The notes under the pieces: generated by a model
Databases searched by the model: none
What the model saw: the letters and a program-made list of their open reading frames with translations, nothing else
What the model was told of the DNA's origin: nothing
Origin: Floccularia luteovirens
Taxonomy: Eukaryota; Basidiomycota; Agaricomycetes; Agaricales; Squamanitaceae
DNA: 64,000 nt
Direction: 5' to 3'
Assembly: GCA_009739215.1 (NCBI GenBank)
Contig: VSJF01000003.1
Location: forward strand, 744,001-808,000
Part shown: one piece after another, positions 7,718 to 12,497 of the stretch
Position numbering within the stretch: position 1 is the stretch's first letter
How the letters are laid out: every line of letters starts with the position of its first letter
Translations under genes and position numbers: made by a program

Positions 7718-7723
7718 AGTTTC
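7718..7723. repeat. left 6-bp target site duplication (AGTTTC)
   Basis: AGTTTC directly abuts the left inverted repeat, and the same six bases follow the right inverted repeat at 12492-12497. This pair defines the exact insertion site of the transposon. Confidence 0.93.
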
Positions 7724-7837
7724 TACGGCTGGCGAGAAGTCTCAGCTTCGTTTTGATGTTGTTACTCACACTTTCCCTTTTCGGGTCACCGTGACACTAC
7801 CGTGTGACAACAACTCTGCGCTATCATCGTGGCATCT
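7724..7837 (+). repeat. left terminal inverted repeat (114 bp)
   Basis: It begins TACGGCTGGCGAGAAG and ends GTGGCATCT. The reverse complement equals 12378-12491. After a 9-base extra stretch in the left copy the match resumes, imperfectly, with AATGCCCAA to about 7860, so the integrase start codon at 7848 lies inside the extended repeat. An 11-bp palindrome with a one-base centre, GTCACCGTGAC (7785-7795), could be a transposase contact site. Confidence 0.95.
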
Positions 7838-7847
7838 ATTCAACACA

Positions 7848-9450
7848 ATGCCCAAATCTTCAGGCAGTAACCAGTGGGGCGAGAAAAACTGTACGTGAAA
7901 AGTTTCCTTATACATGCTATTGTACTTATTATGCAATGTAGACCCTTCCGATGAGGAGCTTCAAGTGGCCTTCAATCAATATGCAAAGGAAAACAATGGC
8001 TCCGGTCTCACTGCAGAACAACAACTTGCAAGATTGGAGCGTGAATTCGGCCTATACATTAAGTTTGTATTCCTGTGCATGGTGTTGCTATTGATGTAAA
8101 CTTCTCCCTCAGACGAGCAGGGCTATATCGGTTGCGCAAAAGACTAGGGATAAAAAGCATTCGAAAAAATCAAGAAACATCTTTGCAAGATACCATCCAG
8201 TTAGTTGTTGACATCAAGGCTGATGATACAGCTGGGAAATGGGGTGTTGCACAGGTTTGACAACGCCTTGCGAATACGGGCATCCTGTTGAAGCGGTATG
8301 TTAGTTTGCTACGATGTTTTCATTAAACTTTCTTATATTGTGTTAGCGATGATTTGCGACAGATTCTCCATGACAATTTTGAACCTGAATTCAATCTACG
8401 CCTTTGTTTTTCTAACCGTAACATGATCAAGCGTGTCCCACTCGATTGCCTGGGACCCTGGCATCAGTTGCACTCTGATGGGCATGAGAAGCTTGCAGAA
8501 CAAGCACTCCGAATGGGTCATGGTCTCTCACTTCCACTCTATGCATTTAAAGATGAATTCTCATCTTTTGTACCCTATTTGCGCGTTCTTCCTAATGTCC
8601 GCACATCAAGAGCTATTGGACATGCTTTTCTAGACTTCGTTGAACTATATAAATGTAAGTACTTTATCTCCAGCTTCTATGATACTTGTTAATATAGTGC
8701 AAATCAGGTATTCCAATTCAACTTACAACAGATAAAGGTTCTGAAATTTCAGACATGATCCGCTGTCATGAAACACTCCGGTAAGCCAACTTAAATCATT
8801 ATTTGTATTTTCACTTTATTAATCGAGAATTTAGGCTTCATGCTGCCCCCGATTTCATGGTTGAAAAATGGCCAACTGCTATTCAAGTTCAAAGCAAACA
8901 TAACACCCCAATTGAGTCATTTTGGAGGTGGAAACGTCAAGGTGAAGGTCATAGCATCAAGGAAGTGCTCTTCACTGGAAAAGAGGCGGGTATACTCAAT
9001 CCAAATAACTGGTTGCATGTGTATGTTACTATATTCTAGTTTCTTCCGGTTCTTTACTGAGATCTTTTTAGTCAGGTTTTTAAGTGGCTGTGGCCACCTC
9101 TCGTACAGCAGCGTTTGGATGAATTCCGTGAATATTGGAATAATCATTCTCTGAAGCGGCAAAAAGAGAAATTGTTGCCAAGTGGAATGCCACCTCGCCA
9201 TGTCTGGATGGTTCCAGAAAATGCACGCGCTAATGCACGAGACTGTTCAATAACAGTCAGTCTTGATCTTGTTAAACAACTTCGTGAAGAACTAGGTGGT
9301 ATGGAAGGTCGTGCTGAAGTACTTGATTTTGTTGATGATGAATTTCGGGCACAAGCAGATAATGCCTTAGCACAGTTGGGATTTCCGATTATCACACTTT
9401 TAAATGCATGGGATATTTTCGAAGCTATAGTAGAGATTCTATCACTATAA
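7848..9450 (+). pseudogene. integrase/transposase (rve-like DDE), one premature TGA
   Basis: Seven exons splice cleanly: 7848-7890, 7942-8062, 8113-8295, 8347-8654, 8708-8780, 8835-9020 and 9072-9450, with introns of 50-54 nt. The protein starts MPKSSGSNQWGEKN and has an N-terminal helix-turn-helix-like part (RLEREFGLYIKRAGLYRLRK). An integrase core follows. Candidate catalytic residues are D in HSDGHEKL, D in LTTDKGSE and E in HNTPIESFW. A conserved end follows (WLWPPLV, EYWNNH). Basidiomycete genomes hold many proteins of this kind, usually annotated only as integrase-core proteins. In exon 3 a TGA at 8258-8260 interrupts the frame between GKWGVAQV and QRLANTGILLKR. Both sides match the family and no alternative splice stays in frame, so I read it as a nonsense mutation; CGA to TGA by CpG decay is the simplest route. 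Otherwise the gene looks complete. Confidence 0.88.
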
Positions 9451-9584
9451 TAACGTAGTCAGTAGTACATTGAAATATGAAGTTTTTTTGGTGCTTGCAT
9501 AATCTATCAAACTCAAACACACATAAAATCTGAATTTTCCATCAGGCTGAGACCTTCAGCAGAACTCTTGCCACCTCAACAATC

Positions 9585-12104
9585 ATGTCGCAGTCTCAGA
9601 GAAACATTCAACCTTGTGGTGGACCCGATAATGATGCAAATGGATGTGGAACAGTCTTTCCACGTATGCAAATGGATGCAATCCTCTGTCAGCTTTGTAA
9701 AAAGCTGAATAAGAATAGCATTACTGATGCTGAGATTGCTTTTATCAAGGTTCGCACTCTGTCACCTGTCCATTTACTATGTTGAGCTCACAAATGGAAT
9801 CTAAAGGAAAAATTCAAACAATGTTTCGAATGTGGGCTTAGTGGAACCAATGTTAGCAACCCTTGTGGAACCTGTAAAAGACTTGGTACGTACTATTCAA
9901 TTATGATATTTGCATCAGGCTCAGATGTAATCAACTATTTATAATATTAGCACATCAAGAGAATGGCGTAATAGACGAACCTACTTTAGCAGGGCAAACT
10001 CGCCGAAAAGAACTTTTGGACTGCCGTTTGAACCGGCAAGTTGGCCCAGCAACACCAGCCACAGAGCTTGAGAGCCTGCGAGGGCGAAAATATATCAGCA
10101 CCTACATTTGCAGTTGGCTATGAATGTCGAAGAAGTAATGCACCAAATTCAGTTGATCGGATTCTAGGAAAATGCTGCCAGCCATTTGCTGAGTCTATGA
10201 CACTCTTAGGCAAGTTCAAGTTCTACAATTTAGTATATAAATGATCAACTTACTTCTTATCTGCAGAACTGAAAGAATATATTGTGCGAAGCATTAATCC
10301 ACGATGGACTGAAACTCATGCTGCAGACTTGAAACCGTATGTCAAAACCATCCAATTTTATAATTTCAAATCTCACTTTTCACATAAAATAGAAGTGAGA
10401 CTGAACTGCGCATGTGCAAAAATCTAGCCTTGCCACTTGGGGATGAAACTCTAACATTGCGTCAGTTTTACAATAAGTATAATCAACATGGATTACGGGA
10501 CATGTACCTTGTTCCTCCCTCAGGAATGTCAAAGGGAAACCGAGGATCATCATTTTCAGTTGAGCTATTTATCCATGTGGACCGGGTAAGCATATTTCAC
10601 TTCTAAGTTTCAGGAATATAAGTTTAATATTATTGAACCGAAGTTTATGCAAAGAACTGGCGAAGGGGAAGATGATGAGTCATCCATGCTAGAATCAACT
10701 ATGAGTATCAGTAATAGTAACGGAAAACGCAAGCGTCAAGTAACCTCTTCTAAACGTGGGACCCGAACATCAATGTCAGGTAAAGGTGGCCGAAGCAGTA
10801 ACAAACGATTTTGCAGCAGTAAGTTTATGAGTTGTGACTGCATTGCCTATATACTCATTCCGACATTAATCTCTAAATAGATAGAGAGAACTTCACACCA
10901 CTTACAAGTACTTTTGAGCGAGATAGAGGATTGGAATCTATAGCTGTGACGCAACCACAGCCTCAAGATCTGAAATTGGTGAAATTCACACGTCTCTCAT
11001 GTGAAATCAACCATACCAATGGCACACCTATCTTTTCGGATGCATCTACAGTAGAATATGGGTATATTGACCAGATACCCATAGTTCTGTCATCTTCGGA
11101 TCGCGGAAAGACAAAAGATGTGTTTGCAGTCAGTGTTACTGTTATATAATCACAACGTTACTCACCCAGAGACATAGTTTGTAATGGATGACAAATCCTA
11201 TGTTGCGAAGAAACTAGTCAACATTGGAAAGGGACAAGGCATTGGGATTACACTTAAAGCCTCCTTTGAATGCCTCAAGAATGACCTAATCCGTCTGAAG
11301 CGAATGGAATACTTCTCTACTTTATTTACTAAAAAAGCAGAGGTTAAAGGTGTAGAGATAGCAGGTAAGCTTTACATTATGTTTCCTGTATCGTTATCAT
11401 TAACTCCATAATTTTCTTCTAGACTTCCAAATCTCTGATGGATTCATCATAAAAGTTCTTGATGAACCCGAGGCTGCTGCTGTTAATGATGAAGAAGTGA
11501 GGGATGCCAATCCTTGCAATTCTGAAGATGAATTGGAGGCACCAGTCAGCATAGCAACACGACGCAAACACGATGAATTACATAACGTTACTGCAGTTTA
11601 TCTTGTTGAACCTCGTCGTCTCTCATCTGCTGTCAACAAATACTCTGGAACTTTTGGAATGCGAAATTGTTCAGATAAACTGGGCGCAACTATAATGGCA
11701 TTTAGCCATTTTGTCATTGAAAGTTCAGCTTGTGAATACATGTTTGCAGATATTCAAGGTAATTTCGGTACTAGTAGTGCAATTTAGGTCATACTAAAAA
11801 GATTTATTAGGCTCATTGGACCGTAATCCTAATGGTAGTCATGAGACTATCATGACACTTTTTGATCCAATGACACATACACCACTTGGGTAAGCGATTG
11901 ATACTTTCTACTGAGTTAACTTGCTAATCAAACTTGTTATGACCTAGTAAATCTGGTCTTGGTGACCATGGACTAGCAGGATTCAGAGATTTCATTGAAC
12001 AACACAAATGTTCAGCAGTCTGCAGTAAACTCCGCCATTACTCATTAAATGAAATCAATAAACAACTCGAAAAACTTGACAACGACATAAACAACACTGC
12101 CTAG
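9585..12104 (+). CDS. alpha-type protein kinase carried by the transposon
   Basis: The start at 9585 gives MSQSQRNIQPCGGPD. The N-terminal third has Cys pairs (CQLC, CFECG, CGTC), likely zinc ribbons. A Lys/Arg/Ser-rich stretch at about 10720-10810 (GKRKRQ, SSKRG) may be a nuclear signal. The C-terminal half is an alpha-kinase (MHCK/eEF2K/TRPM7) catalytic domain: nucleotide-binding Lys in SYVAKKL (about 11200), VYLVEPRR, catalytic Asp in YMFADIQG, FDPMTH, the Gly-rich GLGDHGLAGF, and the zinc-binding end HKCSAVC (H, C-x3-C). The stop is at 12102-12104. About eleven exons are needed; one intron (10210-10266) appears to be GC-AG. Near 10087-10090 the frame must shift by one base to join LESLRG to the conserved PTFAVGYECR, so this copy may carry a one-base insertion in an A-run, or an unusual intron. 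The catalytic half is uninterrupted. The kinase substrate and its role in transposition are unknown. Confidence 0.85.
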
Positions 12105-12377
12105 ATGTCACATTTTCCACACACATATCCTCAGCACTTTCGCACTGCTATGTCAGTGTGTTTTCTATTGCTATACGCTCATTTTCTGCTCATAGTTTAG
12201 TTTTTTCGTACAGTATTCCGTACAGTATTCTACTTTTTACATCATTTAGTTCCTTGATTTGACAAAAAATTCTGAATTCTCTATACTACCCATTTGATAT
12301 GTCCCCTACTATTACTTTATCCTAACATATCATGAAATCTAATGTTTTCATCGCTACCGCGCAAAGAATTGGGCATT
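12105..12377. other. non-coding right subterminal region of the transposon
   Basis: About 270 AT-rich bases lie between the kinase stop and the right inverted repeat. The 3' UTR of the kinase must lie here. A perfect 12-bp tandem duplication is annotated separately. Bases 12361-12377 are the imperfect inner extension of the right inverted repeat. Confidence 0.8.
12207..12230 (+). repeat. 12-bp tandem duplication CGTACAGTATTC x2
   Basis: Two perfect adjacent copies occur (12207-12218 and 12219-12230) in the right subterminal part of the transposon. Subterminal repeats often serve as transposase binding sites, but two copies alone could also be replication slippage. Confidence 0.8.
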
Positions 12378-12491
12378 AGATGCCACGATGATAGCGCAGA
12401 GTTGTTGTCACACGGTAGTGTCACGGTGACCCGAAAAGGGAAAGTGTGAGTAACAACATCAAAACGAAGCTGAGACTTCTCGCCAGCCGTA
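12378..12491 (-). repeat. right terminal inverted repeat (114 bp)
   Basis: The exact reverse complement of 7724-7837, ending GCCAGCCGTA. The GTCACGGTGAC palindrome lies at 12420-12430. Inward, the bases to 12361 continue the match imperfectly and carry a minus-strand ATG equivalent to the integrase start on the left side. Confidence 0.95.
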
Positions 12492-12497
12492 AGTTTC
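12492..12497. repeat. right 6-bp target site duplication (AGTTTC)
   Basis: Second copy of the target sequence, directly after the right inverted repeat. Confidence 0.93.

What the first reader, a model, noticed from the sequence alone, without database searches (positions are those of the whole stretch)
7724..12491. A DNA transposon that pairs an integrase with an alpha-kinase gene
Seen: identical 114-bp inverted repeats, a 6-bp target duplication, and exactly two co-oriented genes between them, an rve/DDE integrase and an alpha-type protein kinase. Known: alpha-kinases (MHCK, eEF2K, TRPM7 type) are rare atypical kinases, yet mushroom genomes hold unexplained expansions of them. Inference: such transposons may be the vehicle that spread these kinases, and the kinase may regulate transposition or the host. 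I know of no described transposon with this gene pair.
Basis: partly seen in the sequence, partly recalled or inferred. Interest (0 to 1): 0.9.

Follow-up and report, generated by a model that had tools for sequence, protein, structure and literature searches.

The report
Mobile DNA element carrying a kinase
This stretch is a recently active jumping gene of a fungus, probably a mushroom-former, that carries a rare type of protein kinase beside the enzyme that moves it; the two genes have evolved together, and a similar pairing was mentioned in print for rust and truffle fungi in late 2025.

Summary
Window 7724-12491 is a 4,768-bp DNA transposon: 115-bp perfect inverted repeats (TACGG..CCGTA), a 6-bp target duplication and two co-oriented, intron-rich genes, a 430-aa DDE integrase and a 648-aa alpha-kinase. 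The genome holds six copies, 99.5-99.96% identical over aligned bases, each with its own duplication. The window copy is broken in both genes; four copies are open in both. A second family (C19) and a degraded third (C22) carry the same pair. The kinase is no chance capture: between the two intact families both genes have similar dS (0.91, 0.85) and dN/dS well under 1 (0.08, 0.19), and protein trees over six elements agree. In this genome 8 of 9 alpha-kinase places lie beside an integrase. Ends, duplication and transposase fit the IS3EU superfamily. The pairing is already in print: Kojima (Dec 2025, PMC12730594) says in two sentences that IS3EU families bearing a TET gene (rusts, a truffle) also have an alpha-kinase gene, in opposite orientation. 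New here: a TET-less, co-oriented form, evidence of co-evolution, and a tentative ubiquitin-like domain in the kinase. What the kinase does is unproven; I favour action on host silencing, closely followed by action on the transposase.

The parts
7718..7723 (.). left target-site duplication AGTTTC
7724..7838 (+). left terminal inverted repeat, begins TACGGCTGGCGAG
   Evidence: 115 nt, 100% complementary; ends at six full copies
7848..9450 (+). integrase/transposase gene, 7 exons: 7848-7890, 7942-8062, 8113-8295, 8347-8654, 8708-8780, 8835-9020, 9072-9450; 430 aa in intact copies; DDE = D160, D227, E270; TGA at 8258-8260 in this copy
   Evidence: gene model; Pfam rva_4; triad invariant in 51 of 51 aligned relatives
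9585..12104 (+). alpha-kinase gene, 11 exons: 9585-9749, 9807-9885, 9951-10209, 10267-10336, 10393-10585, 10644-10818, 10881-11128, 11178-11364, 11423-11758, 11811-11889, 11948-12104; 648 aa in intact copies; one extra base in exon 3 (near 10087) shifts the frame in this copy
   Evidence: model (exon 6 start corrected after comparison with relatives); PF02816
9585..9885 (+). Cys-rich, zinc-ribbon-like N-terminus of the kinase (CxxC pairs)
   Evidence: read from the sequence and alignment A1; no Pfam match
9951..10585 (+). kinase middle region; the matching part of relative P0002 (137-263) is predicted as a ubiquitin-like fold
   Evidence: low-confidence model
10881..12104 (+). alpha-kinase catalytic domain, DIQG / FDP / HKCSAVC motifs
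12377..12491 (-). right terminal inverted repeat, ends CTCGCCAGCCGTA
12492..12497 (.). right target-site duplication AGTTTC

Best explanation
The element is a recently active DNA transposon that works like, and very probably belongs to, the IS3EU superfamily. Its integrase binds the 115-bp inverted ends, cuts the element out or copies its ends, and joins them to target DNA across a 6-bp stagger (ends, duplications and triad shown; chemistry inferred from the family). The second gene is a standing part of the element, not a passenger: an alpha-kinase with a Cys-rich N-terminus and a tentatively ubiquitin-like middle domain. Most likely (about 0.4) it acts in trans on host proteins that silence or repair transposons; next (about 0.35) it phosphorylates the transposase and sets its activity; other roles 0.25. 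The mechanism of the kinase is inferred, not shown.
For: Six copies with six different perfect 6-bp duplications. Uninterrupted site: joined flanks of copy L013, which sits in copia-like DNA, match 11 places over their full 240 nt at 87-96%. Termini TACGG..CCGTA, 6-bp duplication and TIR over 30 bp are those reported for IS3EU with TET. DDE invariant in 51 of 51 aligned relatives; integrase model (pLDDT 88.8) matches IstA, TnsB and retroviral intasomes. Both genes under purifying selection with similar dS between family A and C19: integrase dS 0.913, dN/dS 0.081; kinase dS 0.851, dN/dS 0.19. Same supported topology for both proteins over six elements, Mantel r 0.87, 7 of 720 permutations as high. 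Kinase beside integrase in 8 of 9 kinase places and 8 of 9 integrase places of this genome. Four of five kinase relatives elsewhere have an integrase relative on a contig of the same length, with adjacent or near tags. Hint for silencing: 18 of 24 C>T/G>A changes between copies are at CpG against 13.9% of C/G sites, as expected from methylation, and in the IS3EU families of PMC12730594 the kinase sits beside a TET dioxygenase.
Against: Seven integrase relatives nearer to or about as near as the linked ones (P0007, P0008, P0009, P0010, P0012, P0013, P0014; 57-66% identity) have no kinase partner that my searches saw; the kinase searches scored only the about 8,000 candidates sharing most words and returned five proteins. 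One integrase remnant (L078) has no kinase within the 7 kb fetched and one kinase remnant (L077) no integrase within 6.5 kb. C22 ends TATC..AGTA are TA..TA but not TAYGG..CCRTA. Kinase structure model is poor (mean pLDDT 40.9). 17 of the 24 C>T/G>A changes come from one copy. Nothing shows what the kinase phosphorylates or that it is active.
Confidence: 0.86

Rival explanations
1. Chance capture: a host alpha-kinase gene fell into one transposon and hitch-hikes as a passenger.
For: Five close integrase families in other fungi show no kinase partner in my limited searches.
Against: dN/dS 0.19 for the kinase and matching dS of the two genes; same tree; three families in one genome; no alpha-kinase place outside such elements or remnants in this genome, so no host donor seen.
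Confidence: 0.04
2. The kinase regulates the transposase itself (direct phosphorylation, copy-number control), not host silencing.
For: Strict pairing and co-divergence with the transposase; genes only 134 bp apart here and 143 bp apart in C19, fitting joint expression.
Against: No evidence of contact between the two proteins; the kinase has extra N-terminal domains that could equally aim it at host proteins.
Confidence: 0.35
3. The kinase serves the host (domesticated or beneficial cargo).
For: Purifying selection alone does not say whose fitness is served.
Against: No single-copy kinase outside elements in this genome: 9 of 9 places are the element, relatives or a remnant; broken copies are tolerated (window copy, L013, C22).
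Confidence: 0.05
4. The transposon is not IS3EU but another rve-type group (Ginger1/2, Polinton-like) or a new superfamily.
For: Integrase Pfam match is to rva_4, shared by many lineages; no direct tree with IS3EU was possible.
Against: TAYGG..CCRTA termini, TIR over 30 bp and 6-bp duplication as described for fungal IS3EU, and the alpha-kinase itself as in PMC12730594. IS3EU is reported from Ganoderma leucocontextum, where close relatives of this integrase occur (P0021, P0059).
Confidence: 0.08

Closest known systems
IS3EU transposons with TET/JBP and alpha-kinase genes, from seven rust species and Tuber indicum (Kojima 2025, PMC12730594; outline, 12 of 18 passages and part 1 of the Discussion seen)
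   Same: 6-bp duplications, TIR over 30 bp, TAYGG..CCRTA ends, transposase plus alpha-kinase gene
   Different: There a TET/JBP gene lies between them and the two genes are in opposite orientation; here there is no TET gene and both genes point the same way. Relation of the kinases not tested (no sequences held).
IS3EU/GingerRoot superfamily in general (PMC10045372, passages seen)
   Same: TA..TA termini, usually 6-bp duplications, IS3/IS481-like DDE transposase without an HHCC domain
   Different: The word kinase does not occur in that paper's main text; the kinase is an addition of the fungal branch as far as I saw.
Alpha-kinases: MHCK A (3lkm), eEF2K (7shq), ALPK1 (9j4p), TRPM7/ChaK (1ia9)
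   Same: Catalytic domain with DIQG, DP and HxCxxxC motifs; best by sequence MHCK A, E 6.8e-11 with the six-sequence profile
   Different: Cys-rich N-terminus and ubiquitin-like middle domain (tentative), transposon-borne.
KDZ and other fungal transposons with TET/JBP (PMC12730594)
   Same: DNA transposon with a second, enzyme-coding accessory gene
   Different: Accessory enzyme is a dioxygenase, transposase of other superfamilies.

Membership tests
IS3EU superfamily | termini TA..TA; in fungal families with TET, TAYGG..CCRTA | tested here: met
   TACGG..CCGTA in 5 of 6 copies, TATGG..CCGTA in L013; C22 relative only TA..TA
IS3EU superfamily | 6-bp target duplication | tested here: met
   6 of 6 copies perfect; also C22 CTTCTC, the 162-bp C14 element GACGTC and C19 TCTGGA if its left end is read as TACGATACGG
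IS3EU superfamily | TIR longer than 30 bp | tested here: met
   115 bp
IS3EU superfamily | rve-type DDE transposase without an HHCC domain ahead of the core | tested here: met
   rva_4, DDE invariant in 51 of 51, integrase fold; no HHCC arrangement seen when reading residues 1-159
IS3EU superfamily | transposase falls inside the IS3EU/GingerRoot clade | not testable with these tools
   Repbase proteins and paper supplements not available
IS3EU of rusts/Tuber with TET | TET/JBP gene between transposase and alpha-kinase; the two in opposite orientation | tested here: not met
   134 bp between the genes, both on +
Alpha-kinase family (PF02816) | Pfam match over the curated cut-off | tested here: met
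   78.4 bits against 21.3
Alpha-kinase family (PF02816) | conserved catalytic and zinc-site residues (residue roles recalled) | tested here: met
   DIQG, FDP and HKCSAVC align with MHCK A; invariant VAKKL, ADIQG and FD over the six aligned kinases, HxCxxxC in 5 of 6, P0003 gene model lacking that end
Alpha-kinase family (PF02816) | kinase activity | not testable with these tools
   needs the protein
Ubiquitin-like fold (kinase middle region) | beta-grasp fold | tested here: inconclusive

The most novel reading that the evidence does not exclude
Alpha-kinases of basidiomycetes are, in the main, a transposon gene family: IS3EU elements took up an alpha-kinase before mushrooms and rusts parted and have needed it since, so that reported kinase expansions (for example in rusts) are largely element copies; the kinase, with its Cys-rich and ubiquitin-like parts, is an element-encoded signalling enzyme that disarms host silencing, as TET does in other families.
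Probability: 0.35. Interest if true: 0.78.

Novelty: new variant of a known kind. Interest (0 to 1): 0.55.

Why it matters
A protein kinase kept under selection by a DNA transposon is a rare kind of accessory gene, and here its linkage to the transposase is shown by selection, co-divergence and recurrence, not by one copy. It makes a concrete question testable: are the alpha-kinase expansions of rusts (called highly expanded in PMC4469406; one alpha-kinase, PGTG_17927, among 46 proteins under diversifying selection in PMC4150398) host genes or transposon copies? If transposon copies, they should be masked before candidate-effector lists are drawn up. It also offers intact copies of one family in one genome for an ordinary transposition assay with and without the kinase.

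Tried and rejected
Kinase structure: AlphaFold2 on P0002 with five sequences gave mean pLDDT 40.9; I use only the ubiquitin-like part of it, as tentative. Relatives in viral contigs: 43 and 69 pattern matches, none confirmed. Own-genome search with Pfam rva_4 found nothing (7 candidates) although integrase copies are there, split by introns, so it is uninformative. A second kinase search with a six-sequence profile returned the same five proteins. A divergent integrase (P0093) and kinase (P0002) as queries in the own genome found no further loci. The 658-aa kinase model had a wrong exon-6 start; corrected to 648 aa (searches used the longer one). Integrase hits in the solved-structure sequence search: 0; the fold search did match. 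Considered and rejected: chance capture; assembly duplication (six different target sites); kinase-less multicopy relatives (only one 162-bp element).

Literature: ten searches. For alpha-kinase with transposon, transposase or DNA transposon and fungi, the one on-topic paper was PMC12730594. Passages only were seen of PMC10045372, PMC5295586, PMC4150398, PMC4469406, PMC8955403 and PMC12411881. The library holds open-licence papers only, so absence elsewhere is not shown.
Full report
What is there. The window holds a complete-ended transposon, 7724-12491, 4,768 bp, with 115-bp perfect inverted repeats and the duplication AGTTTC. It is the only inverted pair of 60 nt or more found in the window. 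A search of the assembly (27.0 Mb, 22 contigs, unnamed) with the end found 14 matches: both ends of six full copies, plus one match each on C14 and C19. The six copies are 4,766 (four), 4,768 (window) and 5,147 bp, with six different perfect 6-bp duplications. Over the 4,766 aligned bases they differ by 2 to 22 substitutions pairwise (99.54-99.96% identity). Joined flanks of copy L013, which lies in copia-like DNA, match 11 uninterrupted places over the full 240 nt at 87-96%. So the element is mobile and was active recently.

Genes. Splicing the intact copies gives an integrase of 430 aa in 7 exons and a kinase of 648 aa in 11 exons, both on the + strand, 134 bp apart. Pfam: rva_4 integrase core, and Alpha_kinase at 78.4 bits against a cut-off of 21.3. 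Introns were placed by reading frame, splice signals and comparison with relatives; no transcript was seen. L009-L012 (4 of 6) are open in both genes. The window copy has TGA at 8258-8260 in the integrase and a one-base insertion near 10087 in the kinase; the insertion is in a run of A and could be a sequencing error. L013 has 381 extra bases in the kinase, which read as a solo-LTR-like insert (TGTTG..CAACA) flanked by AGTAT.

Relatives in the same genome. C19 (L015, 269-4937, on the other strand) is a second family: 73.9% identical DNA, both genes open, same order, 143 bp between them. Its duplication is TCTGGA if the left end is read as TACGATACGG. C22 (L076, 78-6183) is a third: ends TATC..AGTA, duplication CTTCTC, integrase 23% identical and kinase piece 36% identical to the query, both on the same strand; it is degraded, and the motif of the second catalytic aspartate is not seen. 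C14 has one 162-bp element with the same kind of ends, no genes and duplication GACGTC. L077 (C2) is a kinase remnant akin to C22's (65% over 71 aa), with no integrase in 6.5 kb; L078 (C2) is an integrase remnant with no kinase in 7 kb. The alpha-kinase profile gave 9 places in the genome (16 candidates scored): six copies, C19, C22 and L077. Thus 8 of 9 kinase places have an integrase and 8 of 9 integrase places a kinase. The search is exon by exon and may miss distant genes.

Selection and co-divergence. Between family A (L011) and C19, integrase: 429 codons, 86.7% aa identity, dS 0.913, dN/dS 0.081; kinase: 635 codons, 74.3%, dS 0.851, dN/dS 0.19, and by part 0.13 (N-terminus), 0.13 (middle), 0.23 (linker), 0.22 (kinase domain). 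The kinase is less constrained than the integrase but well below 1 in every part; the similar dS argues that neither gene was swapped since the families parted. These are pairwise estimates by one simple method.

Other fungi. The kinase search returned five proteins, the integrase search 185 (120 listed). The fifth kinase relative, P0005 of Mycena, has no Pfam domain and no listed integrase on a contig of its length. P0117 of Mycena maculata is one gene model that holds kinase and integrase pieces, kinase first. Trees of the four outside pairs plus the two families here have the same three supported splits in both proteins; Mantel r 0.87, reached by 7 of 720 permutations. Against this, seven close integrases (P0007-P0010, P0012-P0014) have no partner that I saw. 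No fungal DNA outside this genome could be read.

Mutation pattern. Of 27 substitutions counted against the majority base, 24 are C>T or G>A, and 18 of these 24 lie at CpG, while 13.9% of C/G sites do. 17 of the 24 are in L013 (13 at CpG), 7 in the other five copies (5 at CpG). This is the mark expected if copies are CpG-methylated; the window's TGA (8258) is one such change.

What it is. Fungal IS3EU families with TET are described with 6-bp duplications, TIR over 30 bp and TAYGG..CCRTA ends, and with transposase, TET/JBP and alpha-kinase genes (PMC12730594; passages and part 1 of the Discussion). This element meets those features except that it has no TET gene and its two genes point the same way. 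I therefore file it as very probably IS3EU, a new variant of a known kind. The one missing test is a tree with IS3EU transposases. IS3EU has been reported from Ganoderma leucocontextum and Phlebopus (passages), genera in which relatives of this integrase occur.

How it works. Shown: ends, duplications, intact copies, selection, pairing. Inferred: the integrase joins the ends across a 6-bp stagger; the kinase acts for the element. I put 0.4 on host silencing or repair factors as its target, 0.35 on the transposase, 0.25 on something else. The CpG pattern and the company of TET in related elements lean to the first; the tight pairing with the transposase leans to the second.

The pair as a vehicle for alpha-kinases fits this genome. 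The claim of novelty does not hold: the pair was mentioned in print in December 2025, though without study of the kinase in the parts I saw.

Noticed in passing
L013:500-5647 (copy on C1:21614-26760): A 381-bp insert in the kinase gene of this copy, TGTTG..CAACA with AGTAT on both sides, looks like a solo LTR; the copy itself sits in copia-like coding DNA present at 11 or more uninterrupted places.
   Followed up: partly
window 7724-12491 and L009-L013: Differences between copies are mostly C>T/G>A at CpG (18 of 24), a sign of methylation of the copies; 17 of the 24 are in L013.
   Followed up: yes
L014:4786-4947 (C14): A single 162-bp element with matching ends and duplication GACGTC, without genes.
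   Followed up: yes
L015:269-4937 (C19): One end carries five extra bases (TACGA) ahead of TACGG, inside the duplication TCTGGA: an end shift at insertion or a small duplication.
   Followed up: partly
P0117 (Mycena maculata): One gene model holds alpha-kinase pieces followed by integrase pieces, so the gene order seems reversed there.
   Followed up: no
literature, PMC4150398: An alpha-kinase protein (PGTG_17927) is among 46 wheat stem rust proteins under diversifying selection discussed as candidate effectors; it may be a transposon gene. Not checked.
   Followed up: no
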